Source of the DNA: Yersinia massiliensis CCUG 53443
GTDB taxonomy: Bacteria > Pseudomonadota > Gammaproteobacteria > Enterobacterales > Enterobacteriaceae
Assembly (NCBI RefSeq): GCF_000312485.1
Contig: NZ_HE997652.1
Coordinates: 1 to 64,000 of the forward strand
Direction of reading: 5' to 3'
Length of the DNA: 64,000 nt
Within the stretch, counting starts at the first letter, position 1. The number at the start of each line of letters is the position of its first letter. Below the pieces are notes generated by a model. The model worked only from the letters and a program-made list of their open reading frames with translations. It ran no database searches and was not told the DNA's origin. Below are positions 1 through 5,323 of this stretch, piece after piece. Both the position numbers and the translations under genes were made by a program.

Positions 1-225
1 GCGGTAGGTTTTACTGGCATTGATAATAATGGTGACATCATGCTGACCCGGTAAGAATTTATCAGCTCCGCTAAAGAAATCAGCTAATTCTGCTGAATAG
101 CCTAAACCTTCCAGTGTTTTTATATCAAATGCCGCCGCGCCTTCTTTTGTCGCAGAGAATCCTGCCACAGGAAAAAGGGAAAGCAGACATAAGGTATAAA
201 GGAATGAACACTGGCGACTGACCAC
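1..225 (-). CDS. Fimbrial outer-membrane usher, N-terminal fragment (cut by window edge)
   Basis: The leftward reading frame opens with GTG at 225, preceded by AGGA, and runs off the window after 75 codons. Residues 1-23 look like a signal peptide (VSRQCSFL...LFPVAGFSA). The mature part has FDIKTLEGLGYSAELADFF followed by FLPGQHDVTIIINAS. This is the layout of usher N termini, where secreted Phe-Asp is followed later by a PG-x(2-4)-V-x-hydrophobic-N strand. The usher would be the pore that assembles the pilins encoded just upstream on the same strand. Only about a tenth of a normal usher is visible, so the usher family is inferred and the clade is not assigned. GTG is chosen because no ATG lies in frame before the signal peptide. 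Confidence 0.6.
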   Translation of the reverse strand, partial: MVSRQCSFLYTLCLLSLFPVAGFSATKEGAAAFDIKTLEGLGYSAELADFFSGADKFLPGQHDVTIIINASKTYR

Positions 226-381
226 AAGGATATCCTAAATAGAGTGAGCAATTATTTATCGATAATAGTGCATCTTGATGCTTTATTTATAAAATAATAA
301 GCGTAGTGAGAGGCTGAAATACTTATTAGCGATAGTGTGTGATCAAGACAACTGAAGCCTTGTTGGCTAAAAAATGTGAAC

Positions 382-468
382 TTAGGGAAGCGACGGTGCG
401 ACGTGTGCTACAGCCATACCCAAAATCAGAGAAGATAAAACCGTCACGCCAATCAGTGGCTTTTTCAT
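382..468 (-). pseudogene. Truncated fourth fimbrial-subunit copy (signal peptide remnant)
   Basis: This 28-codon frame (MKKPLIGVTVLSSLILGMAV...) is nearly the same as the signal peptide of the subunits starting at 2249 and 3397. After the signal peptide it jumps to DNA matching the codons around SCTVAS of the intact genes, and it stops at once. Both deletion ends carry GCACC, so a short-homology deletion removed the stretch between the signal peptide and the first cysteine. The rest of the gene is missing. The upstream region, including the palindrome at 641-654, is kept. It cannot make a pilin; a short secreted peptide is possible but unlikely to matter. Confidence 0.8.
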
Positions 469-656
469 GTGTAAGATATCCAAAATTAAAATGTAGGGTT
501 AAGTAATGATTAGCCTCAGTATGCCGATGTAAGATTTATTTTTTGTTTCACTGAAACATGAGCTGAGTCTATTTATTTCGTTGGGATGATTAGACCGCAA
601 TCAGACATGGGCGTATATCGGAATGGAAGCGGACTTAATGTAAGAATATTCTTACG
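469..656 (-). repeat. Upstream-region repeat, copy 1
   Basis: This is the first of three homologous upstream regions; the others are 2250-2438 and 3398-3585. All three run from just before the start codon (GTGTAAGATATCC on the plus strand) to the TAAGAATATT palindrome. They share a 22-bp identical block (608-629 here, core GGGCGTATATCGG) and an ATTTATTTCGTTGG block. The repeat shows that promoter and signal peptide were duplicated together with the subunit genes. Confidence 0.85.
641..654. promoter_or_regulatory. RcsAB-box-like palindrome, copy 1
   Basis: TAAGAATATTCTTA is the core of a perfect 16-bp palindrome (640-655). It matches the published RcsAB box consensus TAAGAATATTCCTA at 13 of 14 positions. 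It lies about 180 bp upstream of the remnant gene at 468, the same distance as in the two other copies. Binding is inferred, not shown. Confidence 0.6.
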
Positions 657-846
657 AAATACTGTGTTATTTAAATGATATTTATCAGTGGATTACTGTC
701 ATCAGATGATGTTCTGAGCCATCACTCTTAAGAAAGCACAACTTGATAGTAAATTGCGCTAGTCCGATGAAGTGTTTCACTTTGAAGAAATTGTTTTATG
801 TGATTCTGACACTAAATAAATCACATAAGGCTAGGCATTTTATGGC
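657..846. other. Intergenic remainder upstream of the truncated copy
   Basis: AT-rich spacer between the copy 1 palindrome and the end of the subunit gene at 847. Together with the upstream repeat it makes a 378-bp gene-free stretch. A weak inverted repeat near 830-846 could end the 847-1482 transcript. I see no other structure. Confidence 0.4.
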
Positions 847-1482
847 CTAAATACCGTAAGCGAAGCTCAAAGTCACCGACCCATCAATATTGATATTTTC
901 AGTAATAGCACCACCCATCGTGGCTGAACTTGCCAGTACTGGTGAGACAGTTAAATCAGCACTGAAGACTTTACCAGCTTTTGCCGTCGTTGCGTTTTGC
1001 GCCCAACCAAAAGGCAAATTATTCGTCAGTGTTTCTGTCGTATGGCCTCCCTGGAATCCGTTTTCTACGTAATAAAAAAAGCTACTTTCACCATCAACCT
1101 TGGCGTTGCTCAATCCTGTTCTAAAGTAACCAATCTTCCCTGTGCCATTGACAAAACCCAACCCAAAATTATGGATTGCCGTGGTATTGCTAACAGATGA
1201 TTTTCGATTATCCGTGGGTGTGAAACTGAGATAAGTCGAGCCATCGCAGGAGATAGTCCAGGTTTTAGTGATTGTGGGTAATATCACTGAGGCCGTAGGT
1301 TGTATTGTTGCGGCTGAAATATTGCCCACGTTATAAACGCCGCCATCAGGGACATTGATAGTACAAGTTGGGACTCCTATTGAGCCTTTGACTTTTAATT
1401 CAGAAGTCGGTGTCGCCGCTTGTACTACCAGAGATAAAAATAACGAGCTGAAAATCGTTAAATTAACAAATTGCATTTTCAT
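847..1482 (-). CDS. Fimbrial subunit-like protein, diverged paralogue
   Basis: A 211-residue exported protein with a signal peptide (about 1-22, ending VVQAA). It has the same architecture as its two neighbours: ELKVKGSIGVPTCTI, a second cysteine in the TWTISCDGSTYL strand (expected disulfide), NFGLGFVNGTGKIGYF, and a C-terminal strand ending TLSFAYGI, as in pilins polymerised by donor-strand exchange. I recall such proteins being grouped under DUF1120 in chaperone-usher clusters, but I could not check. It is far more diverged than the other two copies and lacks their duplicated upstream region, so it probably relies on readthrough from 1611-2249. The start at ATG 1482 (ATGAAAATG) has a weak ribosome site. 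Confidence 0.7.
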   Translation of the reverse strand: MKMQFVNLTIFSSLFLSLVVQAATPTSELKVKGSIGVPTCTINVPDGGVYNVGNISAATIQPTASVILPTITKTWTISCDGSTYLSFTPTDNRKSSVSNTTAIHNFGLGFVNGTGKIGYFRTGLSNAKVDGESSFFYYVENGFQGGHTTETLTNNLPFGWAQNATTAKAGKVFSADLTVSPVLASSATMGGAITENINIDGSVTLSFAYGI

Positions 1483-1550
1483 AAAATTAAATTTACCCCG
1501 TTTATCATATAACGTGGAAAGGTAAAAAGTATCTTCAGGGAAGCGATAAC

Positions 1551-1577
1551 AAGGGCCGAAATAACATTCCGGCCCTT
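1551..1577 (-). terminator. Hairpin after the subunit gene at 1611
   Basis: AAGGGCCGAA pairs with TTCCGGCCCTT with one bulge. The U-tract on the minus strand is poor, so it may be leaky and allow expression of the downstream paralogue at 847-1482. Confidence 0.55.
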
Positions 1578-1610
1578 GCTTTCAATTCATTTCATTTGTC
1601 TTCGCGGTAA

Positions 1611-2249
1611 TTAGATACCGAAAGCGAAATTCATGGTCATTGAACCGTCAAGCTCTGCATCGTCAGTGATTGGACCGCCCATCGTGGTGGTGCCAGCCAA
1701 CATTGGGCTCACTGTGATATCAGCCACAAACACTTTACCGGTGCTCTGGGTGTTAGCCGCAGATGACCAACCGGTGCGCAGACCTGTGGTCAGGTTAGCT
1801 GTCGTTGTCGCCGTGAACGTTGATGTTGCAGAAGAGAACAAGTTAGACGCTTTGCCGTCTACAGTGCCGTTCTTAATCAACGCAGTGTAGTAACCGATTT
1901 TGCCGGTAGTGTTCACGTTACCCAGACCGAAGTTAGTGGTGGCAACGGCACTGGCAGATGCTGCGCGGTTATCGACTGGTGTGAAGTTCAGATAAGTATC
2001 AGCATCACAGGTCACCGTCCAGGTTTTCGTCATTGGCGTCAGCGCGGTCGTGGCCGTCCCTGATTTGACTAAAGATGAAGACAATTTACCGAAATCATAA
2101 ACACCTTCATCTGGAGAAGCGACGGTGCAGCTTGGAACAGTCAGTGTACCAGTGACTTTCAGTTCAGCTGTTGGTGGTGCGGCGTGCGCTGCAGTCATGC
2201 CCAAAACCAGAGAAGATAAAATAGTCAGACCAATCAGTTGCTTTTTCAT
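1611..2249 (-). CDS. Fimbrial subunit, tandem paralogue A
   Basis: A 212-residue exported pilin-like protein. The signal peptide MKKQLIGLTILSSLVLGM ends at AHA. The mature chain begins PPTAELKVTGTL, with cysteines in VPSCTV and TVTCDADTY, a FGLGNVNTTGKIGYY motif and C-terminal MTMNFAFGI. It differs from the next copy (2759-3397) at only about a dozen residues, half of them clustered between SNLFSS and TGWSS. I choose ATG 2249 over the in-frame TTG at 2264 because it begins the signal peptide. It carries its own upstream copy with a perfect RcsAB-box match. Its position upstream of an usher supports a role as a surface pilus subunit. Confidence 0.75.
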   Translation of the reverse strand: MKKQLIGLTILSSLVLGMTAAHAAPPTAELKVTGTLTVPSCTVASPDEGVYDFGKLSSSLVKSGTATTALTPMTKTWTVTCDADTYLNFTPVDNRAASASAVATTNFGLGNVNTTGKIGYYTALIKNGTVDGKASNLFSSATSTFTATTTANLTTGLRTGWSSAANTQSTGKVFVADITVSPMLAGTTTMGGPITDDAELDGSMTMNFAFGI

Positions 2250-2438
2250 GTGTAAGATATCCAAAATTATAATGTAGGGGTCAGTAATAATTGGTCTGTC
2301 AGCATGTCAATATAAGCTCTATGTTGAGTTTCATTAAAACATGATCTAGGTCAATTTATTTCGTTGGAGTGATTAAACCTTAATAAGGCATGGGCGTATA
2401 TCGGAATGGAAGTGAACTTGATGTAAGAATATTCCTAC
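2250..2438 (-). repeat. Upstream-region repeat, copy 2
   Basis: Second copy of the duplicated 5' region. The conserved 22-bp block is at 2391-2412 and the palindrome at 2424-2437. Differences from copies 1 and 3 are scattered, while the two blocks are preserved, which suggests the blocks are under selection. Confidence 0.85.
2424..2437. promoter_or_regulatory. RcsAB box, perfect consensus match
   Basis: TAAGAATATTCCTA equals the published RcsAB consensus at all 14 positions. The centre lies about 181 bp upstream of the start codon at 2249. This is far for simple activation next to the polymerase, so the transcription start is probably well upstream of the gene, or the site acts from a distance. 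Confidence 0.7.
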
Positions 2439-2636
2439 TGGTTATTTTTGTTAATTTAAATTAATTTAATCAATAGGTTGCGTTGCGATTGAAAGCCGTT
2501 GGATGTCATCTTTTTTTTGAATAATCCTATTGATAAAAATAATAGGAATCAGATTTCTGCCTGCCTAAAAACCATCGCAACTCAGTTATCGTCAGTATTA
2601 GGGGTTTATTAACGCCAATGTGTATTTGGCGCGTTC

Positions 2637-2678
2637 TATTTTATTGATGAAAGCGGAGTGCAGGACATCAATAAAATA
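2637..2678. repeat. Perfect 13-bp inverted repeat, 16-nt loop
   Basis: TATTTTATTGATG pairs perfectly with CATCAATAAAATA. It sits just beyond the terminator of the 2759-3397 gene. Another small stem (CGCCAA/TTGGCG, about 2614-2632) follows, so this gene-free stretch (2250-2758) holds three hairpins in a row. It may protect RNA 3' ends or be a relic of a small inserted repeat. Confidence 0.6.
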
Positions 2679-2682
2679 AAAA

Positions 2683-2716
2683 AATAAGGGCCGGAAATAA
2701 TATTCCAGCCCTTATT
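2683..2716 (-). terminator. Rho-independent terminator of the first subunit gene
   Basis: AATAAGGGCCGGAA pairs with TTCCAGCCCTTATT with one mismatch. On the minus strand it is followed by seven T residues. It is much stronger than the related hairpin at 1551-1577, so the 2759-3397 gene is likely a monocistronic unit. Confidence 0.8.
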
Positions 2717-2758
2717 TACTATTAATGTGTATTCACTATTAATTTGTCTTCGCGGTGA

Positions 2759-3397
2759 TTAGATACCGAAAGCGAAGTTCATGGTCATTGAGCCGTCAAG
2801 CTCTGCATCGTCAGTGATTGGACCGGCCATGGTAGTGGTGCCAGCCAAAATTGGGCTCACTGTGATATCAGCCACAAACACTTTACCGGTGCTCTGGGTG
2901 TTAGCCGCAGATGACCAACCGGTATGCTGACCTGTTGTCAGGCTAGCTGTCGTTGCTGCTGCAAACGTTGATGATGCAGAAGAGAACAAGTTAGACGCTT
3001 TTCCGTCTACAGTGCCGTTCTTAATCAGTGCAGTGTAGTAACCGATTTTGCCGGTAGTGTTCACGTTACCCAGACCGAAGTTAGTGGTGGCAACGGCACT
3101 AGATGTCGCTGCGCGGTTATCGACTGGTGTGAAGTTCAGATAAGTATCGGCATCACAGGTCACCGTCCAGGTTTTCGTCATTGGCGTCAGCGCGGTCGTG
3201 GCTGTCCCTGATTTCACTAAAGATGAGGACAATTTACCGAAATCATAAACACCTTCATCTGGAGAAGCGACGGTGCAGCTTGGAACAGTCAGTGTACCAG
3301 TGACTTTCAGTTCAGCCGTTGGTGCTGCCGCGTGTGCTGCCGTCATGCCCAAAACCAGAGAAGATAAAACTGTCAGACCAATCAGTTGCTTTTTCAT
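2759..3397 (-). CDS. Fimbrial subunit, tandem paralogue B
   Basis: A 212-residue near-twin of the product of 1611-2249: same signal peptide (MKKQLIGLTVLSS...), same cysteine pair (VPSCTV, TVTCDAD), same C-terminal NFAFGI strand. Changes cluster in RAATSSAVA and in the FAAATTASLTTGQHTGW region, a likely exposed loop. ATG 3397 is preferred to TTG 3412 because it opens the signal peptide. It has its own terminator and its own upstream repeat, so it can be expressed alone. It is the promoter-proximal gene of the visible cluster. Pilin function is inferred from secretion, the disulfide pair and the neighbouring usher. Confidence 0.75.
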   Translation of the reverse strand: MKKQLIGLTVLSSLVLGMTAAHAAAPTAELKVTGTLTVPSCTVASPDEGVYDFGKLSSSLVKSGTATTALTPMTKTWTVTCDADTYLNFTPVDNRAATSSAVATTNFGLGNVNTTGKIGYYTALIKNGTVDGKASNLFSSASSTFAAATTASLTTGQHTGWSSAANTQSTGKVFVADITVSPILAGTTTMAGPITDDAELDGSMTMNFAFGI

Positions 3398-3585
3398 GTG
3401 TAAGATATCCAAACTTAAAATGTAGGGTAAATGAAGATTTGTCTGTCAGCATGTTGGTGTAATCTCTATTTCGAGTTTCACTAATATGTGATCCAGATCG
3501 ATTTATTTCGTTGGAGTGATTAAACAATAATCAGATGTGGGCGTATATCGGAATGGAAGCGGACTTTATGTGAGAATATTCTTAC
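3398..3585 (-). repeat. Upstream-region repeat, copy 3
   Basis: Third copy of the duplicated 5' region; the conserved 22-bp block is at 3538-3559. The stretch up to the pckA stop at 3704 holds only this repeat and the pckA terminator. Confidence 0.85.
3571..3584. promoter_or_regulatory. RcsAB-box-like palindrome, copy 3
   Basis: TGAGAATATTCTTA matches the RcsAB consensus at 12 of 14 positions. It is placed about 180 bp upstream of ATG 3397, as in the other copies. Confidence 0.55.
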
Positions 3586-3644
3586 AGAATAATTTTTTAT
3601 AGAGTTGAATATATCGAGGAATAATGTCTCGTGGGCTAAAACTA

Positions 3645-3671
3645 CAAGAGGGACACAATGTGCCCCTCTTG
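3645..3671 (-). terminator. pckA terminator
   Basis: CAAGAGGG pairs with CCCCTCTTG (ACACAATGTG in the middle extends the stem). It sits 33 bp past the pckA stop, with TAGTTTTAG following on the minus strand. Confidence 0.65.
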
Positions 3672-3703
3672 GTGTCGTACTAAAACGGTCTTATTCTTCT
3701 AAA

Positions 3704-5323
3704 TCAGATTTTTGGCCCTGCACTCACTAACGCTGCCCCTGCTGGGGTATCGGTATATTTGTCAAAGTTAGTGACAAAGCGCTGCGCCAAATCTTCTGCT
3801 TTCTCTTGCCACTGTGCGACATCCGCGTAGGTGTCACGCGGGTCGAGAATGGCTGGGTCGACACCCGGTAGCGCAGTTGGTACTGCCAGATCGAAGATAG
3901 GCAGAGTGAAGGTTTCAGCCTTATCGATTTCACCGCTCAGAATGGCGTCAATGATGCCACGCGTATCCTTGATGGAGATACGCTTGCCTGTCCCATTCCA
4001 GCCGGTGTTAACCAGATAAGCTTGTGCGCCTACCGCTTGCATACGCTTCACCAGCACTTCAGCATATTGCGTTGGATGCAGCGATAGGAAGGCTGCGCCA
4101 AAACAGGCAGAGAAGGTTGGGGTCGGCTCAGTCACACCACGCTCAGTTCCGGCCAACTTAGCCGTAAAGCCAGACAGGAAGTGATACTGGGTCTGATTCG
4201 CGGTCAACCGTGATACCGGAGGCAATACGCCAAAGGCATCTGCCGTCAGGAAAATAACCTTAGTGGCATGGCCCGCTTTAGAAACCGGCTTAACGATGTT
4301 TTCGATGTGGTAGATCGGGTAAGAAACACGGGTGTTTTCTGTTTTGGAACTGTCATTAAAATCAACGGTCCCATCTGCCAGTACGACCACGTTTTCCAGC
4401 AAAGCATCGCGCTTAATCGCGTGATAAATATCTGGCTCGGCTTCTTCGGATAACTTGATGGTTTTGGCGTAGCAGCCGCCTTCAAAGTTAAAGACGCCAT
4501 CATCATCCCAGCCGTGCTCATCATCACCGATCAATTTACGTTTCGGGTCAGTAGAGAGTGTGGTTTTTCCTGTTCCAGACAAACCGAAGAAGATTGCGAC
4601 ATCGCCTTTCTCACCGACGTTGGCTGAACAGTGCATGGATGCAATGCCTTTCAACGGCAACAGGTAGTTCATCATCGAGAACATGCCTTTTTTCATTTCG
4701 CCGCCGTACCATGTGCCGCCAATGAGCTGCATACGTTCCGTCAGGTTAAAGGCAACAAAGTTTTCGGAGTTCAGGCCCTGCTCTTTCCAATCTGGATTAG
4801 TGCATTTAGCGCCATTCATGACGATAAAATCAGGCTCAAACTGGGCCAGTTCTTCATCTGTTGGGCGAATAAACATGTTTTTGACAAAGTGTGCCTGCCA
4901 AGCCACTTCGGTGACGAAGCGAACTTGCAAACGAGTATCGGCATTAGCTCCGCAGAAGGTATCTACGACAAACAGGCGTTTACCAGACAATTGTTGAGTC
5001 ACCAGCCCTTTCAGGTGGCTCCAAGTCTCTTGGCTTAGCGGTTTGTTATCATTCTTACCTTTGCCCTGATCAGCCCACCACACGGTATCCTGTGTGATAG
5101 CATCGCGGACAATGTATTTATCTTTGGGGGAGCGGCCGGTAAAGATACCGGTATCGACCGCTATTGCTCCTGTGGTGGTGAGGGTTCCTCGCTCGTATCC
5201 TTCAAGCGTGGGCTTCGTCTCTTCCTGGAACAGTAAATCATAGCTTGGGTTGTAAACAATCTCGCTGACGTTATGGATGCCATAGGCGGCGAGCTCCTGC
5301 GGGGTAATTCCTTTAACACTCAT
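3704..5323 (-). CDS. pckA: Phosphoenolpyruvate carboxykinase (ATP)
   Basis: A 539-residue cytosolic enzyme that converts oxaloacetate plus ATP to phosphoenolpyruvate and CO2, the entry step of gluconeogenesis. Visible family marks are [11 protein letters not shown] near the N terminus, the substrate region around [13 protein letters not shown], the P-loop-like kinase-1a motif [11 protein letters not shown] and the downstream GDDEHGWDD metal-binding stretch. Length equals the enterobacterial enzyme (540). ATG 5323 follows AGGAGTTATGAC. It stands alone between its terminator and a 195-bp upstream gap; the AT-rich run around 5398-5412 may be promoter sequence. Nothing unusual. Confidence 0.97.

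What the first reader, a model, noticed from the sequence alone, without database searches (positions are those of the whole stretch)
641..3584. RcsAB boxes upstream of three fimbrial subunit copies
Each duplicated upstream region carries a 14-bp palindrome matching the RcsAB consensus TAAGAATATTCCTA at 13, 14 and 12 of 14 positions, all centred about 180 bp from the start codon. Published RcsAB boxes are known from capsule and flagellar genes. A whole amplified pilin family keeping this site suggests that the Rcs envelope-stress relay switches these fimbriae. The Rcs brake igaA lies only 4 kb away. The location and conservation are seen; regulation is inferred.
Basis: partly seen in the sequence, partly recalled or inferred. 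Interest (0 to 1): 0.75.

Follow-up and report, generated by a model that had tools for sequence, protein, structure and literature searches.

The report
Rcs operator shared by Yersinia pilins
A scattered family of Yersinia pilus genes, on chromosome and plasmids, appears to carry the same DNA switch for the cell's envelope-stress relay at a fixed distance from each predicted promoter, so surface damage may switch the whole set together.

Summary
The three palindromes are real and as described (13, 14 and 12 of 14; centres 180-181 bp from the start codon). One correction: the box at 641-654 precedes a dead 28-codon pilin remnant and then the usher gene, not an intact subunit. The feature is wider than the window. 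In 25 Yersinia genomes, 40 of 43 lead genes of this DUF1120 pilin type carry the box, against 0 of 17 followers, 0 of 8 other DUF1120 genes in Yersinia and 0 of 28 in the loci fetched from outside Yersinia. In 21 diverged promoters it is the most conserved element and lies 63-65 bp before a predicted transcription start. Of the genome's 19 best sites, 10 belong to this family; the other nine include flhD, a known Rcs target. RcsB is 91% identical to E. coli's. Best reading: an RcsB(A) operator, probably activating from upstream. Binding and direction are inferred. The closeness of igaA is ancestral synteny, not evidence. RcsB-controlled fimbriae are known elsewhere; this dispersed set appeared in none of the paper listings seen.

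The parts
641..654 (.). RcsAB-like box TAAGAATATTCTTA (13/14), promoter of pilin remnant + usher
   Evidence: identical 14/14 in Y. massiliensis (L091) and Y. frederiksenii (L114)
2424..2437 (.). RcsAB-like box TAAGAATATTCCTA (14/14), promoter of subunit 1611-2249
   Evidence: centre 181 bp from ATG
3571..3584 (.). RcsAB-like box TGAGAATATTCTTA (12/14), promoter of subunit 2759-3397
   Evidence: centre 180 bp from ATG
2395..2400 (-). predicted -35 TATACG of the 2249 gene
   Evidence: joint core-promoter column; sequence
2372..2377 (-). predicted -10 TTTAAT of the 2249 gene
   Evidence: sequence
3542..3547 (-). predicted -35 TATACG of the 3397 gene
   Evidence: sequence
3519..3524 (-). predicted -10 TTTAAT of the 3397 gene
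   Evidence: sequence
612..617 (-). predicted -35 TATACG of the remnant/usher promoter
   Evidence: read by eye at the spacing found; this promoter was not in the set
589..594 (-). predicted -10 TCTAAT of the remnant/usher promoter
   Evidence: read by eye at the spacing found; this promoter was not in the set
1..225 (-). start of outer-membrane usher gene, cut by the contig end (75 codons present)
   Evidence: tblastn 98.7% to the L091 usher; that usher is PF00577
382..468 (-). dead pilin remnant, 28 codons of a DUF1120 signal-peptide region
847..1482 (-). DUF1120 subunit, follower gene, no box of its own
1611..2249 (-). DUF1120 subunit (lead gene)
   Evidence: PF06551
2759..3397 (-). DUF1120 subunit (lead gene)
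   Evidence: PF06551; pilin-like predicted fold
2682..2717 (-). terminator-like stem with T tail after subunit 2759-3397
   Evidence: 8 such sites found in 1-3750, 3.2 expected
3645..3671 (-). terminator-like stem between pckA and the box at 3571

Best explanation
The 14-bp palindrome is an operator for RcsB, most likely as the RcsA-RcsB dimer. It sits about 64 bp upstream of the predicted start of transcription of chaperone-usher pilus operons built from DUF1120 pilins. Under envelope stress, phosphorylated RcsB (with RcsA) would bind there and most likely help RNA polymerase from this upstream position (class I geometry), switching on the dispersed pilin genes and the usher-chaperone operon together. 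Shown: the sequence, its conservation, its restriction to lead genes and its fixed spacing to a predicted promoter. Inferred: RcsB as the binder, the start of transcription, and activation rather than repression.
For: 40 of 43 lead genes carry the box at up to 3 mismatches, 0 of 53 genes in the other classes. Of 41 anchored lead promoters, 21 are under 70% identical to one another outside the box; all 21 have it at up to 3 mismatches, against 0.52 expected from shuffles (the boxless lead gene and the one with N were left out before this step). Mean information is 1.54 bits per column in the box, 0.18 in the left flank and 0.49 in the right. None of 300 permuted 14-mers does as well, and the commonest 7-mer found without any model is TTCCTAC, 13 of 21. 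The best -10 between +54 and +64 falls at +58 to +60 from the box start in 21 of 21 and matches 5 or more of 6 in 20 of 21; mean match 5.05 against 3.05-4.10 in eight other intervals of that width. This puts the box centre at -63 to -65, while the leader varies from 78 to 131 nt. Of 19 distinct genome sites with at most 1 mismatch to TAAGAATATTCYTA, 10 are promoters of this family; four of the other nine were named: flhD, two diguanylate cyclase genes and efeU. RcsB is 91% identical to E. coli RcsB. In Y. pestis the hmsC box lies within 59 bp upstream of the mapped start and its authors conclude that RcsB activates through it (PMC4325325, section 6 read; passages). The pilin gene behind the usher box is dead in three species, yet the box is 14/14 identical.
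Against: No binding or expression data for these genes. The start of transcription is predicted, and the -35 hexamers match only 2-4 of 6; a general promoter scan of 1-3750 gave 6 sites against 8.6 expected and did not pick these promoters. RcsA-like proteins score below the NCBIfam cut-off in 25 of 25 genomes, and that model also rings in unrelated control genomes such as B. subtilis, so RcsA itself is not proven. [quoted passage not shown] Three of 43 lead genes lack a qualifying box: one has a run of N in its leader with a box beyond it, one has 4 mismatches, one has 5. Of the nine other sites with at most 1 mismatch, five were not linked to a known Rcs gene and one of these lies inside a 126-aa ORF.
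Confidence: 0.6

Rival explanations
1. The box is an RcsAB operator but represses the pilins, so the fimbriae are made when Rcs is quiet and shut off under envelope stress.
For: RcsAB directly represses hmsCDE, hmsT and hmsHFRS in Y. pestis (PMC4381331, passages); Rcs represses mrpA, pmfA and ucaA in P. mirabilis (PMC7917084, passage). One of the six promoter-like sites (2454-2426, 9 of 12) has its -10 inside the box at 2424, though six sites are fewer than the 8.6 expected by chance.
Against: The box lies upstream of the predicted -35 and not over the core promoter in 21 of 21 diverged promoters, whereas the repressing sites of hmsT and hmsHFRS overlap the -10 and the start of transcription (PMC4381331). 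RcsB homodimer sites are usually upstream of the -35 (PMC5651002, passage).
Confidence: 0.27
2. A different LuxR/FixJ-type regulator recognises the same palindrome, or RcsB acts there with a partner other than RcsA.
For: RcsB works with several partners (PMC5651002, passages). The genome also encodes a 205-aa LuxR-type protein whose DNA-binding domain is 47% identical to that of RcsB over 58 residues.
Against: The full 14-bp RcsAB consensus is matched on both halves, and the same word stands upstream of flhD.
Confidence: 0.1
3. The sites are kept only because the copies are recent duplicates; they have no function.
For: The copies in the window share extended promoter homology, and Y. hibernica has three identical 1125-bp periods.
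Against: The box is conserved in 21 promoters under 70% identical outside it, with information far above its flanks, and persists where the pilin has decayed.
Confidence: 0.02
4. Chance matches in AT-rich upstream DNA.
For: 2 of 100 shuffles of the window reach the observed count of 11 loose matches.
Against: 0.52 of 21 expected, 21 of 21 observed.
Confidence: 0.01

Closest known systems
RcsAB box of the Yersinia hmsCDE promoter (PMC4325325; section 6 read, other passages seen)
   Same: Same consensus; box within 59 bp upstream of the mapped start in hmsC, against a predicted 57-59 bp from box end to start here.
   Different: hmsC matches only 9 of 14 and has an extra left half-site; there it controls a diguanylate cyclase, here a pilin family. 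Binding was tested there and not here.
RcsB-MatA control of Mat (ECP) fimbriae in E. coli (PMC7917084, PMC5651002, passages)
   Same: RcsB controlling a fimbrial operon.
   Different: There the partner is MatA and the effect is independent of RcsB phosphorylation; here the site is a full RcsAB palindrome and many unlinked pilin genes share it.
Rcs repression of mrpA, pmfA and ucaA fimbrial genes in Proteus mirabilis (PMC7917084, passage)
   Same: Rcs acting on fimbrial genes.
   Different: Opposite direction to the one favoured here; no shared operator is described in the passage seen.
RcsAB box upstream of flhDC
   Same: The same word upstream of flhD in this genome, TAGGAATATTCCTA; RcsB binds the E. 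coli flhDC box (PMC5829831, passages).
   Different: Flagellar master regulator; Rcs represses it in E. coli (title in a reference list).

Membership tests
RcsAB box | 14-bp imperfect palindrome TaAGaatatTCcta | tested here: met
   0-3 mismatches in 40 of 43 lead promoters; in 21 of 21 diverged representatives G at position 4 and TTC at 9-11 are invariant. Consensus as printed in PMC4325325.
RcsAB box | Placed near a promoter of the controlled gene | tested here: met
   Fixed 58-60 bp from box start to a predicted -10; the promoter is predicted, not mapped.
RcsAB box | Organism has RcsB and RcsA | tested here: inconclusive
   RcsB 91% identical over residues 1-215. RcsA-like match over positions 1-191 or 1-192 in 25 of 25 genomes, but below the NCBIfam cut-off in all; 25% identical to E. 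coli RcsA in the own genome.
RcsAB box | Bound by RcsB/RcsA in vitro | not testable with these tools
   needs gel shift or footprint
Rcs regulon | Expression depends on rcsB | not testable with these tools
Chaperone-usher fimbriae | Usher (PapC type), PapD-type chaperone and Ig-like pilins in one locus | tested here: met
   PF00577, PF13953, PF13954 and PF00345 in the Y. massiliensis counterpart; predicted fold of the pilin matches 8psv, 9fwz and 3me0; the chaperone lies outside this window
DUF1120 (PF06551) | Pfam profile above gathering score | tested here: met
   29.1-37.9 bits against a cut-off of 21 for the three subunits

The most novel reading that the evidence does not exclude
Pilin genes in Yersinia travel and multiply as about 1.1-kb cassettes of RcsAB operator, promoter and pilin gene, on chromosome and plasmids. 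They feed one or a few usher-chaperone machines whose own operon carries the same operator, so the Rcs relay sets both the amount and the subunit mix of the pilus in one step.
Probability: 0.3. Interest if true: 0.7.

Novelty: new member of a known kind. Interest (0 to 1): 0.52.

Why it matters
It turns a hint from one locus into a clear, genus-wide prediction. A stress relay known in Yersinia for control of biofilm genes would also set a scattered family of pili made of proteins still filed as 'unknown function'. The fixed operator-promoter spacing gives a set of natural promoter variants for measuring how RcsB acts from about -64.

Tried and rejected
igaA closeness as evidence: rejected, the same gene order (igaA, yrfG, hslR, hslO, then pck and envZ) is found in E. 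coli K-12.

-10 at +37 with the box against the -35: considered first, dropped because the joint -35/-10 column profile peaks at +37/+60 with a 17-bp spacer, mean 6.24 against 3.73 (sd 0.62) over 318 columns.

FNR/CRP-like palindrome as a second operator: FNR-like at up to 2 mismatches in 11 of 21 against 4.1 expected; CRP-like in 3 of 21 against 1.1. Suggestive only; left open.

RcsA by E. coli sequence at E 1e-20: 0 of 25; repeated with the family model, which found relatives below the cut-off in 25 of 25 and also rang in 5 of 14 control genomes.

Box outside Yersinia: none in the 28 genes of the loci fetched (one search listed further matches for which no locus was taken), nor at this distance in Serratia oryzae and the further relatives, where two loose 3-mismatch matches lie 8 and 32 bp from an ATG.

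Rfam on window 1-5000: no match.

Rows dropped or merged before the counts: genes with under 220 bp of upstream sequence (number not printed), and identical copies within one genome merged (among them tandem copies of Y. hibernica and inverted plasmid copies of Y. massiliensis). The split between this pilin type and others (profile score 250) was set by me. Of the 43 lead genes, 41 entered the anchored set (one dropped for N, one for 5 mismatches); the 21 representatives were drawn from these 41. In one search the -10 was the best match between +54 and +64, ties going to +60.
Full report
What is there. The window is the start of contig C10 of a 5.05-Mb Yersinia genome. It is close to Y. massiliensis: G014, identified by the 121,622-bp length of its plasmid, equal to NZ_CP028488. 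On the minus strand lie two DUF1120 pilin genes with their own promoters (1611-2249, 2759-3397), a third pilin gene behind the first (847-1482), a 28-codon pilin remnant (382-468) and the first 75 codons of an usher. The boxes are at the stated coordinates with the stated matches. In Y. massiliensis the same locus runs on into usher, PapD-type chaperone, two more DUF1120 pilins and then envZ/ompR-like genes (envZ/ompR named from my reading of the ORFs). A predicted model of the pilin (mean pLDDT 74.1; residues 1-37 under 50) has chaperone-usher pilus proteins as its 25 best PDB matches, 3 of them at E up to 0.001, and the sequence profile finds a fimbrial protein, 7lhi_F, at E 1.6e-4. 'Fimbrial subunit' is therefore well founded.

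Beyond the window. The genome has 12 DUF1120 genes over the Pfam cut-off and one more box-bearing relative found by my own profile. Within 400 bp, 11 of the 12 have a box with 0-2 mismatches. Ten of these lie 142-181 bp from the ATG; in the other a run of N lengthens the gap to 360. The exception is the follower gene 847-1482. Among 25 Yersinia genomes 17 have DUF1120. For the type found in the window, 40 of 43 lead genes have the box at up to 3 mismatches, 31 of 43 at up to 2, against 0 of 17 follower genes, 0 of 8 other DUF1120 genes in Yersinia and 0 of 28 genes in the loci fetched from outside Yersinia. The three misses are the gene with N, one with 4 mismatches and one with 5. All 14 genomes with this type have at least one promoter in the anchored set. 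Serratia oryzae, whose pilin is 70% identical, has none, so the link is probably a Yersinia gain.

More than descent. I anchored 41 lead promoters on the box and kept 21 that are under 70% identical outside it; the boxless lead gene and the one with N were left out before this. The box holds 1.54 bits per column, the left flank 0.18 and the right flank 0.49; G4, A5, T9, T10, C11, A14 and the next C are invariant. Because anchoring on a consensus can inflate this, I repeated it with 300 permuted 14-mers: none did as well (best mean mismatch 3.62 against 1.67; highest information 1.32 against 1.58). Without any model, the exact 7-mer present in most promoters is TTCCTAC (13 of 21), then GTTTAAT (12 of 21), the -10 region. 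Shuffled promoters give 0.52 of 21 by chance.

Geometry. The joint -35/-10 profile peaks at one column: -35 at +37 and -10 at +60 from the box start, with a 17-bp spacer (6.24 against mean 3.73, sd 0.62, 318 columns). Searching +54 to +64, the best -10 falls at +58 to +60 in 21 of 21 and matches 5 or 6 of 6 in 20 of 21; the mean match is 5.05, against 3.05-4.10 in eight other intervals of the same width. The box centre then lies 63-65 bp before the predicted start, while the leader to the ATG varies from 78 to 131 nt. The spacing that is kept is box to promoter, not box to gene. A general sigma-70 scan of 1-3750 did not pick these promoters, as expected if their -35 is weak. In Y. pestis the hmsC RcsAB box lies within 59 bp upstream of a start mapped by 5' RACE, and the authors conclude that RcsB activates through it (PMC4325325: passages, section 6). 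The same section also reports that mutating the box raised expression, so the precedent is mixed, and PMC4381331 (passages) reports direct repression.

Is it an Rcs site? Of 19 distinct sites in the genome with at most 1 mismatch to TAAGAATATTCYTA, 10 are promoters of this family. Of the other nine I named the neighbour of four: one 246 bp upstream of flhD, one 142 bp upstream of a diguanylate cyclase, one 100 bp upstream of a PAS-GGDEF protein and one 136 bp upstream of efeU. The remaining five have no Rcs link that I could name; one lies inside a 126-aa ORF and one 576 bp before another fimbrial-like gene. flhD is a known Rcs target (PMC5829831, passages), so the word marks at least one accepted Rcs site in this genome. 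RcsB is 91% identical to that of E. coli. An RcsA-like protein is found in 25 of 25 genomes, but below the family cut-off, with a model that also rings in unrelated control genomes.

A natural test. In the window, in Y. massiliensis and in Y. frederiksenii the pilin gene between the box and the usher is dead, broken differently in each, yet the box is 14/14 identical in all three. Between the window and Y. frederiksenii the flanks are 34/60 (left) and 50/60 (right) identical. The box seems to be kept for the usher-chaperone genes. One box in three sequences is no statistical proof on its own.

Spread. Y. hibernica has three identical 1125-bp periods, each with a perfect box, and plasmids of Y. 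massiliensis and Y. hibernica carry copies with the box. The unit that multiplies is operator, promoter and pilin.

What is known. RcsB control of fimbriae is not new (Mat fimbriae in E. coli, repression in Proteus; passages). Nine paper searches listed no title or abstract opening on DUF1120 pilins under Rcs; several lists were capped (for example 30 of 110). 'DUF1120' itself occurs in one held paper, whose title concerns a database of cysteine residues (listing). Two Yersinia Rcs expression papers are not held, and in the Y. pestis study PMC10191623 the word 'fimbria' does not occur in the main text. So prior notice in a subscription paper or a supplement is possible.

Verdict. An RcsB(A) operator is about 87% likely in my judgement; activation from about -64 about 60%; repression about 27%.

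Noticed in passing
window 2341-2354 and 3488-3501: FNR/CRP-like palindrome (TTGACCTAGATCAT, TCGATCTGGATCAC) about 18 bp after the predicted start. FNR-like at up to 2 mismatches in 11 of 21 promoters against 4.1 expected.
   Followed up: partly
window 1; L007 end; L009 end: Contigs C10, C6 and C11 all break inside usher genes, as expected if near-identical usher copies collapse in assembly.
   Followed up: no
L088 3075-6449: Y. hibernica: three identical 1125-bp periods of promoter plus pilin gene, a fresh amplification.
   Followed up: partly
L121 577-1194: 205-aa LuxR-type protein whose DNA-binding domain is closest to RcsB among NCBIfam models but far below cut-off; possible RcsB partner or competitor.
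   Followed up: partly
L019 3092-3105: A box with 1 mismatch lies 576 bp before a different fimbrial-like gene, so a second fimbrial type may be touched by Rcs.
   Followed up: no
L012 3236-3249; L011 3439-3452: Boxes with 1 mismatch upstream of efeU (iron uptake) and of a PAS-GGDEF protein: candidate further Rcs targets.
   Followed up: partly
L116 6001-6639: Y. frederiksenii has a lone DUF1120 pilin gene with a box (3 mismatches) and no usher or chaperone match in the 12.6-kb locus: an orphan pilin under the same operator.
   Followed up: partly
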